NCBI GenBank assembly: GCA_002110465.1
Contig: NEED01000002.1
Span: 1-64,000 of the forward strand
Direction: 5' to 3'
DNA length: 64,000 nt
From: an unicellular cyanobacterium SU2
Lineage (GTDB): Bacteria > Cyanobacteriota > Cyanobacteriia > Cyanobacteriales > Microcystaceae
Made by a program: the position numbers and the translations under genes. Shown piece by piece: positions 36,907-44,383 of the stretch; position 1 is the stretch's first letter, and each line of letters starts with the position of its first letter. The notes beneath the pieces are model-generated. The model was not told the DNA's origin. It was given only the letters and a program-made list of their open reading frames with translations, and did no database searches.

Positions 36907-37605
36907 TTAATCACTACTTTTTTTAGGACGGAAGGGACGTAAGAAGTTTAATAGGGGATAAATGGCGCGACTTTGAATCCATAAACGACCTTGACCACTA
37001 AATCGACAGACTAACCCTTCCCCTCCTAAAATTCCTGTTCTCAAACTCTTAAATGATAGCCCCCCAATCATCTCTACATTATAATTTAGGGTATCTTCAA
37101 AAGCGACAATATAACTGGTATCTACTACATAACCTTCTTCCACAGGAATTTCTAAAATAGCCCCATAGGAACTAAACCAAAAATCTCCTCTTCCTGTAGC
37201 CCGTAATAAAAACAAAGATTCCCCACTAAAAAACCCTTTAAACCCTTGAAATTGAGTATCTATTTCTACCGTATCACTACAGGCAACAAACCCTGATGAT
37301 TGAACCATTAAACCACAACGATTTTCGATAAAATAGTGTTGAATATCACCTGGAACCCCAGGGGAAACATACAATCTTCCTGATTGTTTTTGGGCAGTAA
37401 ATTGATTAATAAATAAAGATTCACCCCCCAACATTCTACCGAGTCCTTTCATTAAACCGCCTTTAACCTTAGATTGCATTTTAATGGAGGTATCCATCGC
37501 CGCCATCGCTGAAGCTTCTACTAATACGGTTTGTTGCGATCGCAAATTAAGAATTAATGAAGCATAAGCTGGAGAATGTTCAATTTTATAAGCAATTTCT
37601 GACAT
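36907..37605 (-). CDS. AIM24/TIGR00266-family protein (paralogue 1)
   Basis: The 232-residue beta-rich protein has the AIM24 pattern: VLVEASAMAAMDTSIKMQSK, GGLMKGLGRMLGGESLFINQ, and a C-terminal GILGGEGLVCRFSGQGRLWI. Members are soluble beta-prisms of unknown function. Two further paralogues lie at 43028-44383 on the same strand, so this gene belongs to a triad now split by the retron island. Confidence 0.88.
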   Translation of the reverse strand: MSEIAYKIEHSPAYASLILNLRSQQTVLVEASAMAAMDTSIKMQSKVKGGLMKGLGRMLGGESLFINQFTAQKQSGRLYVSPGVPGDIQHYFIENRCGLMVQSSGFVACSDTVEIDTQFQGFKGFFSGESLFLLRATGRGDFWFSSYGAILEIPVEEGYVVDTSYIVAFEDTLNYNVEMIGGLSFKSLRTGILGGEGLVCRFSGQGRLWIQSRAIYPLLNFLRPFRPKKSSD

Positions 37606-37746
37606 ATCTAGTAGTCCTATTTGAGGGATGAATACTAAGCTTAATGCTTTATAGTAATTTTAATTTATTTATATCTACTGACTTAACTGAAAAATTGTAT
37701 CATTATTATACTTTTTAAGTAGTTTTATCTAGTAGTATGATCAAGC

Positions 37747-39801
37747 TTAATCTGAGTGATAGACTTTAGCAATCGCTTCTCCTTTATTCTGAATTATTTT
37801 CATCAACTCCGATGGTTGTACTACCTTCACCTGACCCCCAAATCCCAAAATCCAGCGATGCAAGTCTACATCATCTAAAGACCACTTGGGTAAGGTTACT
37901 TGAAAACGGTTAGGAAAATTTTTATCTTCAGTTTGAGGCAAGATAAACGGGGGTTTTCCTACTTTAGACTGTTTTCCTTCTAGGGGATAAGACATCTTCA
38001 TCTGTTTGAGGGGAAAGCGTTTTGTTCCCTCACTAATGAATCGAAAAATATAATCATTACACCATATTTCAAGAGTTATTTCTGCTTTTTTTCGCTGGCA
38101 AAAATCACGACTCAGGTAACTTTTTTGTATTTTTGGATCATTTCCTAAAAATATCCCTCCACTCGATTCATACAAGGTTTTTAAGTTATATAGAGATTTT
38201 TCTTGTTCTTTGCGTTGACGGGTTTTTGATTGAGGTTTTCCTAAAAATAAACGGTCTAAACGTTCAAAACGCAATAAACCATGATTTTTACCCCCTTCAC
38301 ATTCAAATCCTAAATACCAACCAATATTATGAAAAACAATTTGAAGAGGAAAGGCCAGAAAAAATTCGTCAGGTTGCTCGGAAAACCGTCCCCCTCCCTT
38401 GATACGATTTAATTCTAATAGTCTTCCTTCTTCAATTGCTCTTTCTACTTGGTCAATTTTTTTTACCAGTGCAGTTTCAGGTACAGTTTCTAGATCAATA
38501 ATAGTTCTGTTATTGATAGCTCGTACAGGGTAAGCTTGAGGTGAGGCTATTTTTGACTGTTGTATCCGTTCTTTGAAGGTTTCATAAACTTGTAATGCTA
38601 AGGGATCTTCTAAACTTTTTGCTTGAGCTTCAAGTAAGCGATAAACTTGGATTAGGTCAGTTTCAGAAAGTATAGCAGTGCCAGCAAAATAACCTCGTTT
38701 CATAGAAAAATTTGGTAAAATTTTAAAGGGTTTTAAGACTTTCTCAATGTCTTTGCGAATACTATCAGTACAGTCTCCCATCAATAGGTGCTGTTGTTGC
38801 ATCTCAGACACCAGAGAATTAAGGGTTCCTTGATCTTGATACCAGGTCAAAGGATGATGCAAAATGAAGCGAATGGTCTGTATAAGACGTTTAAAGGGTT
38901 CAATATCAGAATAAGGATGAGTGATGAGATCGGGGTTATCAATGACAGATAAATTAATGTCAATTTGATTGTTCCATTGTCCAATAATACCATTGGTTTC
39001 TAACCAGTGAAGGTCTTGGGCGATCGCTTCTTCTTTAGCATAGATTGGGTGTGCGTATTTTCCTAATGCTGCACAAATTTCTTGTAGGGAGGTATCAAAA
39101 GTGAGGTTTTCCCCTAATAGTTGTTCTAGTTGTTGAGGATTAGTGGTTTGTAAATTTCCTATCCCTGGATAATGTAACAATAGACTAATGAGGTGCATCA
39201 GGCGATCAAAGTCTATTAATTGTGAATAGGAATGAAGGGTTAAATTTTTGTTTTGGGTACGGTTTTGGCGATTAATGAGAGTGCGAGAAAGTTTCGCAAT
39301 TTTGTTGTTAATTTGTTCAATAGCAGACTTTTCTTGTGAAGGGTTGATAGAATAAACAACAGTAAATCCCTCTGCTTCGATAGGGGAAAATTGTTTAAGG
39401 GTTTGGTGCATCTGTTCGATAATATTTATGGGAACTTGACGCTGACGTTGTTCATTCCAAGTTTTGCAAGTTGCTAAGGGTGTTTTAAGATACCAACCAA
39501 TCCACTGAATATTTGAGTATTTTTGTAGCTTTTTAAGTAAAGTGATGCGCCAAGGACGTTTAGCGTTGGTAGCATCATAAATGATAGGGTTTCCTGCTTC
39601 TATATTTTCTTGGATTTGTCTGAATACTTCTGTTTCAATTTGTTCCCAATTTCCTTGAAAAGTTTCGTCTCCAAAAAGTTGTTGGCGAATATTATCTGTT
39701 GAAACGATACGGTAATTACTGTCACTCTTAAGCATCTGAGTAGCAAGAGTGGATTTTCCGCTACCAGGACAACCGATTAAAATGTGACAGATATTAAACA
39801 T
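37747..39801 (-). CDS. P-loop kinase-like and WYL-domain fusion protein
   Basis: The 684-residue protein starts with an AAA_33/polynucleotide-kinase-like P-loop (LIGCPGSGKSTLA near residue 8; IIYDATNAKRPWR with the lid Arg residues). The middle is helical and unrecognised (about 170-420). From about 440 it has a WYL-like region (AFPLQIVFHNIGWYLGFECE; HGLLRFERLDRLFL) and ends with a WCX-like stretch. WYL proteins often sense nucleic-acid ligands and regulate phage-defence systems. It lies 50 bp downstream of the RRM gene on the same strand, so it may be the last gene of the retron operon, but a stand-alone role is equally possible. Confidence 0.75.
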   Translation of the reverse strand: MFNICHILIGCPGSGKSTLATQMLKSDSNYRIVSTDNIRQQLFGDETFQGNWEQIETEVFRQIQENIEAGNPIIYDATNAKRPWRITLLKKLQKYSNIQWIGWYLKTPLATCKTWNEQRQRQVPINIIEQMHQTLKQFSPIEAEGFTVVYSINPSQEKSAIEQINNKIAKLSRTLINRQNRTQNKNLTLHSYSQLIDFDRLMHLISLLLHYPGIGNLQTTNPQQLEQLLGENLTFDTSLQEICAALGKYAHPIYAKEEAIAQDLHWLETNGIIGQWNNQIDINLSVIDNPDLITHPYSDIEPFKRLIQTIRFILHHPLTWYQDQGTLNSLVSEMQQQHLLMGDCTDSIRKDIEKVLKPFKILPNFSMKRGYFAGTAILSETDLIQVYRLLEAQAKSLEDPLALQVYETFKERIQQSKIASPQAYPVRAINNRTIIDLETVPETALVKKIDQVERAIEEGRLLELNRIKGGGRFSEQPDEFFLAFPLQIVFHNIGWYLGFECEGGKNHGLLRFERLDRLFLGKPQSKTRQRKEQEKSLYNLKTLYESSGGIFLGNDPKIQKSYLSRDFCQRKKAEITLEIWCNDYIFRFISEGTKRFPLKQMKMSYPLEGKQSKVGKPPFILPQTEDKNFPNRFQVTLPKWSLDDVDLHRWILGFGGQVKVVQPSELMKIIQNKGEAIAKVYHSD

Positions 39802-39851
39802 TTATAAAATAAAATTTTTTTTAGTTATTTTAGGAAAAATCAATAATCATT

Positions 39852-40517
39852 TCAATCTGGGTTATTAGTTTTCTTGTATTCGTTTTGTGAGGTCATATCA
39901 ATATTGCTTAAATGTCTACATAGTTCAAAGATAAATGATGTCACAGTGTCAATTACTAATTCACAATCACGGTTTTCATAAAACTCATGTAAGTCACTAG
40001 AATTATTATCATGGTTCGCAATACCTCCGAAAGATTTAGTCTTCGATGATTCCTTTTTTTCCATTGAGAGACTGTTTTGTTCTTTGATTTCTTTTAAACT
40101 TTTGATTTTATCATAAAATTTTAAATCAGCTAATTTTATTTGTATTTCTTCTCCATGCCATTCTACTCCATTTAATTTATCTATAATATTTTGAGCATCC
40201 TTATAACTTACTATATCAACAAAAGCATGTTTAAAAGCATATTTATAAGACTTTAGTAATCTAATAGATTTTTTAGGATTATCAATTTTACCTAAGTTTC
40301 CAATTTTCTCTTTGATATCATCTGTAGTAGTATTTTCAGGAATATTTGTTATTCGTATTTCGTGTTTAGTTCTTAGCTTGAATTTCCAGTTTTTATTAGA
40401 AATTAGGTCTTTTTCATTTAGTCTTTTTTCAATTTTTTCTTTTGCTTCTTCTTCCTGGTCTAAATTTTCAAAATCGTCATCTTTTGTATACTGTGGTAAA
40501 AGAGTGGTAATAACCAT
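39852..40517 (-). CDS. RRM-type RNA-binding protein in the retron operon
   Basis: The 221-residue protein has an acidic N-terminal helix (about residues 11-35) and one RNA recognition motif at about 53-131. RNP2 is IRITNI, RNP1 is KHAFVDIVS, and the last strand region is GEEIQIKLADL. The C-terminus is Ser/Asn-rich then helical (VIDTVTSFIFELCRHL). Cyanobacterial Rbp proteins have an RRM but are about 100 residues, so this is a different and longer protein. It starts 24 bp after the HEPN gene. Binding of the retron RNA or of the HEPN target is an inference. Confidence 0.8.
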   Translation of the reverse strand: MVITTLLPQYTKDDDFENLDQEEEAKEKIEKRLNEKDLISNKNWKFKLRTKHEIRITNIPENTTTDDIKEKIGNLGKIDNPKKSIRLLKSYKYAFKHAFVDIVSYKDAQNIIDKLNGVEWHGEEIQIKLADLKFYDKIKSLKEIKEQNSLSMEKKESSKTKSFGGIANHDNNSSDLHEFYENRDCELVIDTVTSFIFELCRHLSNIDMTSQNEYKKTNNPD

Positions 40518-40541
40518 TACTATCTTAAGAAAGAAAGAGAA

Positions 40542-41126
40542 TTAATTAGGAATTTTTTTAATACGAGATTCAACATCATCACCTAAAGCATCTCGATGAC
40601 TTGCAATATTTCTTAACTTCATGATTTTCTTTATAGAATTTTTCATGTTTTCTTTAGTGATATTTGCCAAATCAATGCAGAATTCTAGTTTTTCTAGGTT
40701 AGTTCCTTTGTAACTTTTTGAAGAACCCTCAGTTCTGTCATTGATTTCAATCTTATCTATAGCACCCCATTGGTTTCTTGTAACTGTTATATTTTGATCA
40801 GAGCTATCAACTACTTTAATGAATTCATCCACCATTAATTCTATTTGAAGATTGGCATAACGGCAAAATTCAAGAAAATCATCTTTTATCATAGCCCTTA
40901 ACATCATCCTAAAATCATACTCAAGCTGTTCTTTAAGGGCAGTGTTTTTATTCAAATAGTCTATGGATGAATAGCGAGATTTTTCTATATATTTATTAAT
41001 TCTTTTATAGTCTTCATATCCAATAACTTTAATGTAATTTTCCAATTTAGAAATAGTTTTAGATAATTCTTCTAATTTTTTTTGATCTTGCTTGTCCATA
41101 TTTTTAACAGCAATTTTAGTTGACAT
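40542..41126 (-). CDS. HEPN-domain protein, putative retron effector RNase
   Basis: The 194-residue, almost all-helical protein ends with KKIMKLRNIASHRDALG. R172 and H177 form an Rx4H motif, the catalytic signature of HEPN RNases. The N-terminal third is coiled-coil-like. The ATG overlaps the RT stop by 11 bp, which implies coupled translation. HEPN proteins commonly act as abortive-infection toxins that cut tRNA or mRNA. Assigning it as the toxin of this retron is an inference from position and motif. Confidence 0.8.
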   Translation of the reverse strand: MSTKIAVKNMDKQDQKKLEELSKTISKLENYIKVIGYEDYKRINKYIEKSRYSSIDYLNKNTALKEQLEYDFRMMLRAMIKDDFLEFCRYANLQIELMVDEFIKVVDSSDQNITVTRNQWGAIDKIEINDRTEGSSKSYKGTNLEKLEFCIDLANITKENMKNSIKKIMKLRNIASHRDALGDDVESRIKKIPN

Positions 41127-42246
41127 TTAGAGTAAAATAAGAAAGATCCTGATATTTCTTCAAAAATGCTTGATAAATTGAATCATCTTTACCTTTAACC
41201 ATCCCAATAAACTCGATTTTACCTCGAAGCACTTGCTTAAAAGCCGGATTTCCTTTAGCAGGGAATCGTGATTTAGTGCCATACTTCTGTTGATATTCTT
41301 TTTCTGCTGCCTCTAAACCGAACTTAGCCCAAGCATGGAGCATAGCACGAACCTGACGAACAAAACGACGGTCAACATTGGGAAATTGATTAACTGTTAA
41401 ACCTGTTACCTCTTGATGATTCTTGTTCGTTTGTAGCCTAACCTTTTTATCATTCACCTTAAAGCCATTCTGGTCAATAATAGTTAACAAAGGTTCACCT
41501 AAAATAATGCTTTCCCCTTCTTCTACTGTAACAATTTTTGCCAATGCTTCAGGAAAATTAGGGCGCGTTGTAGAAAAAGTAATATCATCAGCATACCGTG
41601 TATAAGTTGCGCTACACTCCTTCGCTAAACGCTGAAACTGACTATCCATTTTTGCACACAACATATTAGTAATGATAGGGGAAGTCGGCGCACCTTGGGG
41701 AAGTTGATTGTCATGACAACAAATCTGTGCTAAAACTGTTGCTACATCAGGATTTAATCCATAAGGAACCCCCATAAACATTCCCCTAACTCGACCATAA
41801 TTAATAGAGGGAAAAAAGTCCTTGAGATCAAGATTTAAAACGTAACGTTTCTTGGCATGAGCTTGAGCATTTGTAACAATATTTTTTCCAGGAACAAAAC
41901 CATGTGCTGAAGGTTTTGGTTGATAGACAGCTTGTAAAACTTGATTGAGTTTCCATTGAAGAATTTTAATAGCAGTTACTGGGGTTGAGATTTGACGATT
42001 TCCCCCAGATTTTTTCGGTATTTCAAATGTTTTGTAACGATTAGGCTCGGGAACAAGATAAATATGATAAGCAAGACGATTATAGGAAATATCTAATAGC
42101 TTAGAAACATCTTGAGGCGTTTTGAGAGTATAGAAGCGATCGCGTAAAACTTCAGGGCTATAATTGAGAAGTAAAGAAGAACTTTTTTCCTCTCTCTTAG
42201 TCGGTTTCTGGCTGATTTGTTGTCCTTTAGAAAAATCAACTGTCAT
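41116..42246 (-). CDS. Retron reverse transcriptase
   Basis: The 376-residue RT has the retron-specific NAQAH (126-130, NAxxH motif of region X) just before NLDLKDFF, then LPQGAPTSP, the catalytic YADD (218-221) and VTG (280-282, region Y). Group II intron maturase and endonuclease domains are absent. The C-terminus has no obvious extra domain. It would synthesise multicopy single-stranded DNA from the RNA encoded just upstream. I use the ATG at 42246 (MTVDFSKGQQ). A GTG at 42279 is in frame. Neither has a strong ribosome binding site. Confidence 0.92.
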   Translation of the reverse strand: MTVDFSKGQQISQKPTKREEKSSSLLLNYSPEVLRDRFYTLKTPQDVSKLLDISYNRLAYHIYLVPEPNRYKTFEIPKKSGGNRQISTPVTAIKILQWKLNQVLQAVYQPKPSAHGFVPGKNIVTNAQAHAKKRYVLNLDLKDFFPSINYGRVRGMFMGVPYGLNPDVATVLAQICCHDNQLPQGAPTSPIITNMLCAKMDSQFQRLAKECSATYTRYADDITFSTTRPNFPEALAKIVTVEEGESIILGEPLLTIIDQNGFKVNDKKVRLQTNKNHQEVTGLTVNQFPNVDRRFVRQVRAMLHAWAKFGLEAAEKEYQQKYGTKSRFPAKGNPAFKQVLRGKIEFIGMVKGKDDSIYQAFLKKYQDLSYFTLNVN

Positions 42247-42293
42247 ACTGCTTTGTGCCAAGATATAGTTTAGTCTCACTTAGAAAAAAAACA

Positions 42294-42445
42294 AATCACT
42301 TGCCGGAGTATTCTAACTTATGCGCCTCTAAAAGAAAATAAGTAAGTTGCCGTCCAAGAAACTATAGAGTTCTTAGTAAAGCTAACCGTAAAATACACCG
42401 TCGCAGGATCAACAACGGAAATCAATACTTATCCCGCAAGTGATT
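42294..42445 (-). ncRNA. Retron msr-msd RNA, copy proximal to the RT
   Basis: On the minus strand the a1 arm (42445-42424) starts AATCACTTGC and the a2 arm (42312-42294) ends GCAAGTGATT, giving a 10-bp perfect stem continued by GGA/TCC and GTATT/AATAC pairs. The msr half holds the stem CCGTTG/CGACGG (42418-42413 with 42403-42398) and a UUU-loop hairpin TGTA-TTT-TACG. The msd half holds a bulged hairpin at 42356-42374 and a stem AACTTA/TAAGTT (42315-42320, 42343-42348). The a2 arm ends 47 bases before the RT ATG. Confidence 0.78.
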
Positions 42446-42543
42446 AAATTAGACTGGTTAATTGATTAACCATATCCTTAGAATATCCCACAACTCGATC
42501 AAAGCAAAGGACTTTAATGCGAATAACAAATGCTAGTTAGGAT
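42377..42543 (-). repeat. Direct repeat covering promoter, a1 and msr (proximal copy)
   Basis: 167 bp that recur at 42822-42988 with an exact 445-bp offset and about six differences. Within the RNA part (42377-42445) 68 of 69 bases agree. The upstream part contains a 16-bp palindrome GGTTAATTGATTAACC (42456-42471), kept in both copies and lying just before a1. Confidence 0.9.
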
Positions 42544-42692
42544 TTTTAACCCATTGGACTATCTCAACTAAAATGAGAAAATAGCTTAAGTTTATTATTG
42601 GGGTTGAGTCCTAAAGGACTTACTACTAACCTATATTTTGACCTCCTGAACAATAAGCTGAGATCTTTAACTCAGGAAAGGAGAAAAGAACA
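42544..42692. other. Spacer between the two retron RNAs
   Basis: About 150 bp with the palindromic piece AGTCCTAAAGGACT (near 42607) from the family B-type repeats and no gene. Confidence 0.4.
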
Positions 42693-42890
42693 AATCACTT
42701 GCAGGAGTATTAATCAGTTATGCCAAAAAAAAGCATTTTGCCGGCCTATTTATTCCTTATTACTCCTCGGACTCTAATAACTCCTAGAACTCCTATGACT
42801 TCTATGACTGCTAGAACTCCTTAAAGCTAACTGTAAAATACACCGTCGCAGGATCAACAACGGAAATCAATACTTATCCCGCAAGTGATT
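42693..42890 (-). ncRNA. Second, distal retron msr-msd-like RNA with a different msd
   Basis: The a1 arm (42890-42869) is identical to the proximal copy and the a2 arm (42711-42693) differs from it at one base outside the core pairing. The msr half is 68/69 identical. The one change turns the UUU-loop stem TGTA/TACG into TGTA/TACA, replacing a G-U pair by A-U, which supports the fold. The msd half (about 42712-42821) has no similarity to the proximal copy and is largely a 9-bp tandem repeat. No RT gene lies between the two copies. Confidence 0.72.
42762..42824 (+). repeat. Degenerate 9-bp tandem repeat in the distal msd
   Basis: Seven units of 9 bp, among them ACTCCTCGG, ACTCCTAGA, ACTCCTATG, ACTTCTATG and ACTGCTAGA. 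The array fills most of the msd half of the distal retron RNA. Confidence 0.85.
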
Positions 42891-42988
42891 AAATTAGGCT
42901 GGTTAATTGATTAACCACATCCTTAGAATATCCCACAACTGGATCAAAGCAAAGGACTTTAATGCGAATAACAAATATTAGTTAGAAA
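42822..42988 (-). repeat. Direct repeat covering promoter, a1 and msr (distal copy)
   Basis: The second copy of the 167-bp unit described at 42377-42543. It contains the same 16-bp palindrome at 42901-42916. The presence of the upstream flank implies that the promoter was duplicated together with the RNA. Confidence 0.9.
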
Positions 42989-43027
42989 TTGTCATGTCTA
43001 AATGAACTGCTTTCAATCAGTTATGAA

Positions 43028-43705
43028 TTATCTAGGAGGTAATTGGGAACCAACCATAGAACCAAAACTTCCTGGATTATGAGTTTGACAATAAACTTTA
43101 CCTCGGCCATGAAACCGACAGACAAACCCTTCACCGCCAAAAAATGCCCCCAACCAACTCTTATTCGCTTTATCAATCCTAAAATCTAAACTTCTTTCAA
43201 AGGCGACAATATGACCCGTATCCACAACATAATCACCGTTAACATCTATTTCATAAATTCCGCCAAACGACGTTAAAATTACTGAACCAAAACCCGTAAT
43301 ACTTAACCAAAAAATTGATTCTCCTGAGAATAAAGATTTCATTCCTTGAAACCCTAAATCAAGGTCAACCTCATTAGCAGAAGCAAGATAAGAAGCTGCT
43401 TGGACAACTAATTCTTGACCCCTCATTTCATAAACGAGGATGTCTCCCATAAATCTAGGGGCGAGAAAAACTTCACCGTCAGGGGTCGGGGAACGAAACA
43501 CACTTAAAAATAGGGATTCACCCCCTAACATTCGTTTAAATCCTCCCATAATTCCCCCGCCTTTTCCTTTTCTGAGGGTGGTACTGGTATTGATAAATCC
43601 ACTCATCGCCACCATTGCCCCTGCTTGGGCGACGATTTCTTCCCCTGCATTTAAGCTAACTTTAGCGATCGCGCTATCAGGTTGATGTATTAGTTGAATA
43701 TCCAT
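43028..43705 (-). CDS. AIM24/TIGR00266-family protein (paralogue 2)
   Basis: The 225-residue paralogue has the family motifs EIVAQAGAMVAMSGFINTST, GGIMGGFKRMLGGESLFLSV and FFGGEGFVCRFHGRGKVYCQ. It lies 15 bp downstream of paralogue 3 and on the other side of the retron island from paralogue 1. Confidence 0.9.
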   Translation of the reverse strand: MDIQLIHQPDSAIAKVSLNAGEEIVAQAGAMVAMSGFINTSTTLRKGKGGGIMGGFKRMLGGESLFLSVFRSPTPDGEVFLAPRFMGDILVYEMRGQELVVQAASYLASANEVDLDLGFQGMKSLFSGESIFWLSITGFGSVILTSFGGIYEIDVNGDYVVDTGHIVAFERSLDFRIDKANKSWLGAFFGGEGFVCRFHGRGKVYCQTHNPGSFGSMVGSQLPPR

Positions 43706-43720
43706 AATTTATTAAACGTT

Positions 43721-44383
43721 TTAACGGACTTTGGGACGTAAAAATCGAACTAAACCGCTAACACTACGAGATTGCAAATAAATAACCCCATTCCCTTTAA
43801 GTCGGTTAACTAATCCTTCTCCAGATGTTACCGAACCAATTAAACTTCCTGATAACCCAATACTCATTTTAATATTGGGACTGTAGGCAACTAAATGGCT
43901 ATTATCAACGATAAATTCTCCGGTAATATTTTGTTTACTTAATCCTCCATAAGCCCCAAAAAAGACTTGTCCTATACCACTAACTTTTAACTTAAATAAC
44001 CCTTCTCCTGCGAACCAACTAGCAAACCCCGCCCAACCTACTCCTAGCTTAACTTTCGGACTACTGGCGATATAAGCCCCTGGTTGAAAATACATCTGGT
44101 TTCCCCTTAATTCTAAACATTCAATATCTCCAATAACTGATTGGGTAAAGGTAACATTCAAGCGTTGGGATGTTTTGTTCTTAAAGACATTAATAAAGAG
44201 GGATTCACCCCCTAAAAATTTCCTTAATAATGCTTGGAAAAAGCCCCCAGAAAATTCAGTTTTCATGGATAAGCGACCATCCATACTGGTCATAGCTCCT
44301 GCTTCAGCTATAATACTTTCACCAGGGTCTAAGGTGACAAAAATAGCAGCAAAGGCTGGTTTATATCGGATGTCATATTTCAC
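43721..44383 (-). CDS. AIM24/TIGR00266-family protein (paralogue 3)
   Basis: The 220-residue paralogue has ESIIAEAGAMTSMDGRLSMK, FLGGESLFINVFKNKTSQRL and VTSGEGLVNRLKGNGVIYLQ. It is the first gene of the triad. The three copies differ enough to be old duplicates, and their functions are unknown. Confidence 0.9.
   Translation of the reverse strand: MKYDIRYKPAFAAIFVTLDPGESIIAEAGAMTSMDGRLSMKTEFSGGFFQALLRKFLGGESLFINVFKNKTSQRLNVTFTQSVIGDIECLELRGNQMYFQPGAYIASSPKVKLGVGWAGFASWFAGEGLFKLKVSGIGQVFFGAYGGLSKQNITGEFIVDNSHLVAYSPNIKMSIGLSGSLIGSVTSGEGLVNRLKGNGVIYLQSRSVSGLVRFLRPKVR

What the first reader, a model, noticed from the sequence alone, without database searches (positions are those of the whole stretch)
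42294..42890. Two tandem retron RNAs upstream of one RT, same msr but unrelated msd
Both units have the a1/a2 arms and the msr parts are 68/69 identical at an exact 445-bp offset, while the msd parts share nothing obvious. The single msr difference changes a G-U into an A-U pair in the UUU-loop hairpin, supporting that both are folded RNAs. The duplicated unit includes about 95 bp upstream of a1, so each RNA may have its own promoter. One RT could thus make two different msDNAs, a way to diversify the sensing element.
Basis: partly seen in the sequence, partly recalled or inferred. Interest (0 to 1): 0.9.

Follow-up and report, generated by a model that had tools for sequence, protein, structure and literature searches.

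The report
Retron with a duplicated template RNA
A cyanobacterial retron carries two copies of its template RNA gene in a row, with the same scaffold but different DNA-coding parts; the copy next to the enzyme looks normal, while the outer copy has lost a start signal kept by its near relatives, so two different products are possible but unproven.

Summary
On the minus strand two retron ncRNA units (distal 42890-42693, proximal 42445-42294) precede one RT (42279-41116). Their msr is 68/69 identical at offset 445, and 93 of 100 nt upstream match; the msd parts are not clearly alike. The RT is a retron RT of the XI/XII/I-C lineage, unfused. In 24 relatives the ncRNA fits the Eco2 plan: a1/a2 stem, priming-type G, AUUU, one stem-loop. 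Next to a2, 48 of 54 units keep A.G...G(AAT-like), the predicted start of reverse transcription: the proximal unit does, the distal does not. Adjacent pairs are rare: 2 of the 38 order genomes with a unit, among 388 searched: the window, and G046, whose two units both keep arms, stem-loop, priming-type G and start motif. Dissimilar msd on a near-identical msr is usual between genomes (125 of 191 pairs). Verdict: a duplicated retron ncRNA. Two msDNAs from one RT is plausible for G046 and doubtful for the window's distal unit.

The parts
42891..42990 (-). distal copy of the duplicated upstream block (putative promoter region)
   Evidence: 93/100 identical to 42446-42545; holds TTCGCATTAAA, an element also found in 6 of 17 other upstream regions
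42693..42890 (-). distal ncRNA unit, a1 to a2 (198 nt)
   Evidence: a1/a2 paired, SL1 intact, R1 80.6 bits; start motif absent
42868..42868 (-). distal priming-type G (ATTG)
   Evidence: this G is invariant in the 24 rows of A1; homology with the Eco2 branch G is inferred
42843..42863 (-). distal msr stem-loop SL1
   Evidence: identical to proximal; 3 of its 7 pairs show double-sided change in 24 relatives
42712..42821 (-). distal msd-specific part, with direct repeats of about 9 nt at 42762-42821; predicted first template base 42712 is T
42446..42545 (-). proximal copy of the upstream block
42294..42445 (-). proximal ncRNA unit, a1 to a2 (152 nt)
   Evidence: a1/a2 paired with one mismatch, SL1 intact, start motif kept, R1 80.4 bits
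42423..42423 (-). proximal priming-type G
   Evidence: as distal
42398..42418 (-). proximal msr stem-loop SL1
42313..42376 (-). proximal msd-specific part; predicted first template base 42313 is G
42604..42637 (.). interspersed repeat between the two units, with matches on three other contigs
   Evidence: L002-L004
41116..42279 (-). retron reverse transcriptase, 387 aa (GTG start; most relatives align from about residue 30)
   Evidence: RVT_1 3e-22; PADLOC RT-Protease_XI 2e-140, RT-TIR_XII 9e-133
40542..41126 (-). 194-aa ORF overlapping the RT gene; HEPN-like only by an invariant R-x4-H motif; candidate effector
   Evidence: R172 and H177 invariant in 8 of 8 rows of A4; no family, fold or PDB-sequence confirmation
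39852..40517 (-). 221-aa ORF with an RRM domain
   Evidence: RRM_1 4e-8; relatives downstream of the RT in L016 and L017
37747..39801 (-). 684-aa ORF with AAA_33 (kinase-like) and a WYL-type match
   Evidence: relatives downstream of the RT in L053, L054, L082, L086, L087, L088

Best explanation
This is a retron of the RT XI/XII/I-C lineage with an Eco2-like msr, whose ncRNA gene was duplicated in tandem together with its upstream region. The scaffold (a1, priming-type G, stem-loop, a2) stayed nearly identical, while the msd of at least one copy was replaced or expanded, the distal one with short tandem repeats. Shown: duplication, scaffold, family, and absence of the start motif in the distal copy. 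Inferred: the RT uses the proximal unit as its normal template; the distal RNA is probably made and bound, but its altered start site makes it a poor or inactive template now, a paralogue in transit. In G046 a comparable pair keeps both start sites and may make two msDNAs.
For: Duplication and scaffold. Family CM matches in 19 of 388 class genomes and 38 of 388 order genomes, adjacent pairs only in G000 and G046. Extended a1/a2 helix up to the priming-type G: 24 of 24 at three positions, 20 of 24 at the next two, double-sided change at the first in two rows (the rows are L054 and L042). Start motif in 48 of 54 units, proximal included, distal not. Distal MFE pairs the priming-type G. Direct repeats in the msd beyond shuffles at p<=0.01 in 7 of 54 units, the distal one included. 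Eco2 anatomy: complementary ends, branched rG15, A16-U19, a single stem-loop (PMC12405507, section 6 read).
Against: The distal unit is not plain debris: a1/a2 pairs better than in the proximal unit (score 32.5 against 28), SL1 is untouched, a helix CAGUUA/UAACUG forms in its msd, and its full-unit fold z is -5.2 (msd part alone -1.8), inside the range of the single-unit relatives folded with it (full -2.0 to -6.9). One difference in 69 nt of msr against 7 in 100 upstream hints at constraint, Fisher p 0.14. A retron stem may contain the priming G (PMC6868368 passage), so helix extension alone does not exclude function. Eco2 starts with dT, so the first template base differs between retrons, and five other units also lack the motif.
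Confidence: 0.55

Rival explanations
1. One RT makes two different msDNAs from two ncRNAs with a shared scaffold, widening what the system can sense.
For: Same scaffold and arms in both units; upstream element in both; a second genome with a pair in which both units keep the tested elements; dissimilar msd on a near-identical msr is usual between genomes (125 of 191 pairs), so msd content seems free to vary; a terminator-like site follows the distal a2 (42675-42658).
Against: The distal unit lacks the start motif kept by 48 of 54 units; only 2 of the 38 order genomes with a unit have an adjacent pair; the RT tree does not group the two cases (two changes; one origin not ruled out); no expression or msDNA data.
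Confidence: 0.3
2. The distal unit acts as RNA only: it binds the RT through the shared msr without being copied, as a decoy or dosage control, or it folds with the proximal unit in one long transcript through the interchangeable a1/a2 arms.
For: a1 is identical in both units, so the arms can cross-pair (inverted repeats I2 and I6); SL1 is identical; start motif lost while the scaffold is kept.
Against: No relative with evidence for such a role was found; nothing here measures binding or transcripts.
Confidence: 0.1
3. The distal unit is a decaying relic without any role. This is the extreme form of the best explanation; its odds are part of that 0.55.
For: Start motif lost, msd with tandem repeats, interspersed repeat in the spacer; a decayed lone unit near a truncated AAA-type ORF exists in G043.
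Against: Arms, SL1 and the upstream element are intact and the msr has changed less than its flank, though not significantly; the G043 relic has lost its arms (best duplex 6 bp).
Confidence: 0.25

Closest known systems
Retron-Eco2 (Ec67), type I-C, structure in PMC12405507 (section 6 read)
   Same: related RT (NCBIfam retron_Ec67_fus 361 bits, under its cut-off of 450); complementary ends, branch G, 4-nt A..U linker, one msr stem-loop
   Different: Eco2 has one ncRNA and an RT-Toprim fusion; here two ncRNAs and an unfused RT with separate downstream ORFs. That Eco2 is type I-C is recalled
Retron types XI (RT-protease) and XII (RT-TIR) of PADLOC
   Same: best RT-domain matches
   Different: no fused protease or TIR domain found; RT of 387 aa with RVT_1 only
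Retron-Nex1 (Ne160) msr/msd repeats, as told in PMC6868368 (passages)
   Same: duplicated msr and msd sequences at one locus
   Different: there no RT within a kilobase; here both units lie directly upstream of the RT, with the upstream region duplicated and the msd different
Type IX retron-Kva2 (HEPN plus winged helix), PMC13405049 (passages)
   Same: a HEPN-like protein beside a retron RT
   Different: the paper finds no canonical HEPN motif in Kva2; this ORF has R-x4-H, though with N or D where the paper's canonical motif has a hydrophobic residue; RRM and AAA/WYL ORFs instead of a winged helix; type IX not among the 25 best of 62 RT models

Membership tests
retron | reverse transcriptase of retron type | tested here: met
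retron | msr-msd ncRNA with complementary a1/a2 ends beside the RT | tested here: met
   both units and 24 of 24 relatives exceed shuffles
retron | priming G at the end of the a1/a2 stem | tested here: met
   ATTG in both units; pairs -1 to -3 kept in 24 of 24 relatives. That this G is branched is inferred from Eco2
retron | reverse-transcribed msDNA | not testable with these tools
   needs msDNA extraction
retron | effector gene in the operon | tested here: inconclusive
   HEPN-like motif only; no profile or fold match
retron type XI / XII / I-C | RT fused to protease, TIR or Toprim | tested here: not met
   387-aa RT; matches end with the RT part of the models
retron type IX | HEPN plus winged-helix partner and type IX RT | tested here: not met
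   RT models XI/XII/I-C rank first; the neighbours match RRM and AAA/WYL, no winged helix found
dual-ncRNA retron (the finding's claim) | both units carry the elements kept in relatives | tested here: not met
   window distal unit lacks the start motif; in G046 both units have it
dual-ncRNA retron (the finding's claim) | two msDNA species made | not testable with these tools
   no RNA or msDNA data at hand

The most novel reading that the evidence does not exclude
Some cyanobacterial retrons carry two ncRNA genes on a common, RT-recognised scaffold with interchangeable msd inserts, so one RT and one effector set read out two different msDNA sensors. msd inserts turn over by replacement and short tandem duplication, and tandem duplication of the ncRNA gene lets a new msd be tried while the old one stays in use. 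G046 would be the working example and the window a recent or failing one.
Probability: 0.33. Interest if true: 0.78.

Novelty: new variant of a known kind. Interest (0 to 1): 0.52.

Why it matters
How retron msd sequences diversify, and whether one RT can serve several msDNAs, is open. A natural locus with one RT, two same-scaffold templates and different msd inserts, beside dozens of single-template relatives, makes both questions testable. The family alignment also gives a concrete rule (priming-type G facing a template G, A.G...G motif next to a2) that predicts which template is used.

Tried and rejected
UUU hairpin in the msr: rejected, not conserved. Competing helix UGUAUU/AAUACA of the close-relative fold: 17 to 21 of 24 at each pair, against 24, 24, 24, 20, 20 of 24 for the a1-extension helix. 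Chance repeat: rejected. Assembly duplicate: unlikely, since the msd parts differ. Residual msd homology between the two units: not established and not excluded. HEPN by fold: AF2 model of moderate confidence (pLDDT 74, pTM 0.61); Foldseek had no hit at E<=0.001 (that the weak hits 1wty and 2q00 are HEPN-type is my recall). PDB sequence search gave nothing convincing. Viral contigs: no relative of the RT by the patterns used, no exact match of the core pattern. Phage records: no DNA match. Plasmids: two records with a DNA match, each with one unit (L053, L054). Prior description of two ncRNAs for one retron RT: the listings (titles and starts of abstracts seen; one search returned nothing) showed none apart from Ne160 (passage); the library lacks most subscription papers and the 2020 typing paper, so this is no proof of absence. 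Close strains of the window's species could not be examined: the genome set holds one genome per species.

Full report
OBSERVATION. The two copies are as described. A 169-nt direct repeat at 42377-42545 and 42822-42990 (offset 445, 95%) and a 28-nt repeat holding a2 (42285-42312, 42684-42711) frame two units on the minus strand. The a1+msr block is 68/69 identical; the other 7 of 8 differences fall in the 100 nt upstream (Fisher p 0.14 for the contrast). The msd parts (64 and 110 nt) are not significantly alike (p 0.19 and 0.44) and borderline (p 0.05). A covariance model from 24 relatives, with no window sequence, gives the units 80.6 and 80.4 bits and no other match in the genome (E<=0.001, E<=0.01; model).

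WHAT IT IS. The RT's best PADLOC matches are types XI, XII and I-C, but it is unfused. The next ORFs are a 194-aa protein with an R-x4-H motif invariant in 8 of 8 rows (also in 8 of 8 rows of a wider, weak alignment), HEPN-like but not confirmed by profile, fold or PDB search; an RRM protein; and an AAA_33/WYL protein. Relatives lie downstream of related RTs: of the 194-aa ORF in L014, L016, L017, L053, L082, L084 and L086; of the RRM ORF in L016 and L017; of the AAA ORF in L053, L054, L082, L086, L087 and L088. The set sits between two AIM24 genes whose relatives are neighbours in G036 and G038 of the same genus, where homology runs to the stop of one and resumes at the start of the other. 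The distal unit's duplicated block begins 37 nt beyond that stop codon, so both units belong to the inserted cassette (inference).

ANATOMY FROM RELATIVES. In 24 relatives (A1) the G of ATTGAT is invariant and the stem-loop CCGUUGU-loop-GCGACGG is strongly conserved; 3 of its 7 pairs show changes on both sides. The a1/a2 arms differ between groups but pair beyond shuffles in 24 of 24 and in both window units (26 of 26 at p<=0.05). The helix continues to that G: positions -1, -2 and -3 pair with +1, +2 and +3 of a template G in 24 of 24, with a double-sided change in two rows. This fits Eco2: complementary ends, branched rG15, A16-U19, one stem-loop (PMC12405507, section 6). [quoted passage not shown] That the G here is the branch point is inferred.

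THE TWO UNITS COMPARED. 48 of 54 units keep A.G...G(AAT-like) just 5' of a2. The six without are the window's distal unit, L036, L037, L038, L050 and L055. In the RT tree L037 and L050/L055 lie outside the window's group; L036 and L038 were not in it. The proximal unit reads ATAAGTTA[G]AATAC, the distal one ATAACTGAT[T]AATAC. In A1 the priming-type G faces a G, not a standard pair, in 24 of 24; in the distal unit it faces U, and the predicted helix GUAUUGAU/AUUAAUAC runs through it. Against decay: distal arms pair better than proximal ones, SL1 is intact, and a 35-nt upstream stretch with TTCGCATTAAA is unchanged between the copies. That element occurs in L053, L054, L086, L107, L108 and L113 and is absent in its exact form from 11 of 17 other upstream regions. 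The promoter scan is uninformative; of 6 terminator-like sites (0.6 expected) four are the two SL1 stems themselves and one follows the distal a2 (42675-42658).

HOW COMMON. Among 388 class genomes 19 have a unit, two of them an adjacent pair. Among 388 order genomes 38 have a unit; two have an adjacent pair (the window's and G046), and G708 has two units 0.9 Mb apart. In the family 7 of 50 have a unit. The sets overlap. Searches of more than 40 genomes use strict filters and may miss weak second units; 19 loci with about 1.5 kb flanks, searched without filters, showed no second unit (one 15.9-bit match at E 0.66). In G046 the units are 328 nt apart; both keep arms, SL1, priming-type G and start motif, but the distal one differs from the family after SL1 and scores only 48.8 bits. 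The RT tree puts the window and G046 apart but unresolved (two changes; 0% of bootstrap trees with one; one origin not ruled out).

msd TURNOVER. Among 28 close units, 191 pairs have an msr block at least 90% identical, and in 125 of these the msd cores are not alike (p>0.05); at 95.5% it is 20 of 71. Cores are short (32-100 nt), so power is low, and pairs are not independent. The window pair is itself at p 0.05 and is not among the 125; it resembles the pattern without being a clean case. Its flanks are 93% identical, so point changes alone can hardly explain its msd difference; replacement or expansion is needed (inference). Direct repeats within the msd exceed shuffles at p<=0.01 in 7 of 54 units (about 0.5 expected) and at p<=0.05 in 8 (2.7 expected), the distal unit (9-nt period) and the G046 proximal unit among them; L087 and L088 are related, so about six lineages.

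MECHANISM, COMMITTED. Most likely the RT reads the proximal unit as its template. The distal RNA is probably transcribed and bound through the same scaffold, but is a poor template now. Dual msDNA is put at about 0.3 for the window and 0.5 for G046; both numbers are judgement. The downstream proteins would be held by the RT-msDNA complex until phage infection, as stated for retrons in general in the abstract of PMC12548924 (listing); not tested here.

NOVELTY. Duplicated msr/msd repeats are known from Ne160, without an RT within a kilobase (PMC6868368 passages). Nothing in the listings describes two ncRNAs for one retron RT; titles and starts of abstracts were seen, in an open library only.

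Noticed in passing
window 36907-44383: The retron cassette interrupts a run of three AIM24 genes whose relatives are uninterrupted in G036 and G038 of the same genus; no integrase match among the seven ORFs scanned.
   Followed up: yes
window 42604-42637: The spacer between the units holds a short interspersed repeat with matches on three other contigs (L002-L004).
   Followed up: partly
L053, L087, L088, L089, L091, L082 (proximal unit), window distal unit: Short direct repeats inside the msd beyond shuffled expectation, in about six lineages: a possible route of msd diversification.
   Followed up: partly
window 42712-42722 and 43015-43025: 11-nt direct repeat AATCAGTTATG at the msd end of the distal unit and just outside the duplicated block (seen); may be chance or a recombination scar.
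   Followed up: no
L090 (G043): A lone weak unit without pairing arms near a 185-aa ORF that matches only residues 8-152 of the AAA_33/WYL protein: a relic of the same system in the genus of G046.
   Followed up: partly
L083 (G145): RT with a stop inside while the ncRNA beside it looks intact.
   Followed up: no
window 39852-41126: HEPN-like plus RRM ORFs beside an unfused XI/XII-lineage RT, neither with a PADLOC match; the pair recurs in L016 and L017.
   Followed up: partly
L082 upstream of the distal unit: The distal unit of G046 has CGTTCGCAT upstream, as in L054; the proximal unit does not, so the pair may share one promoter.
   Followed up: no
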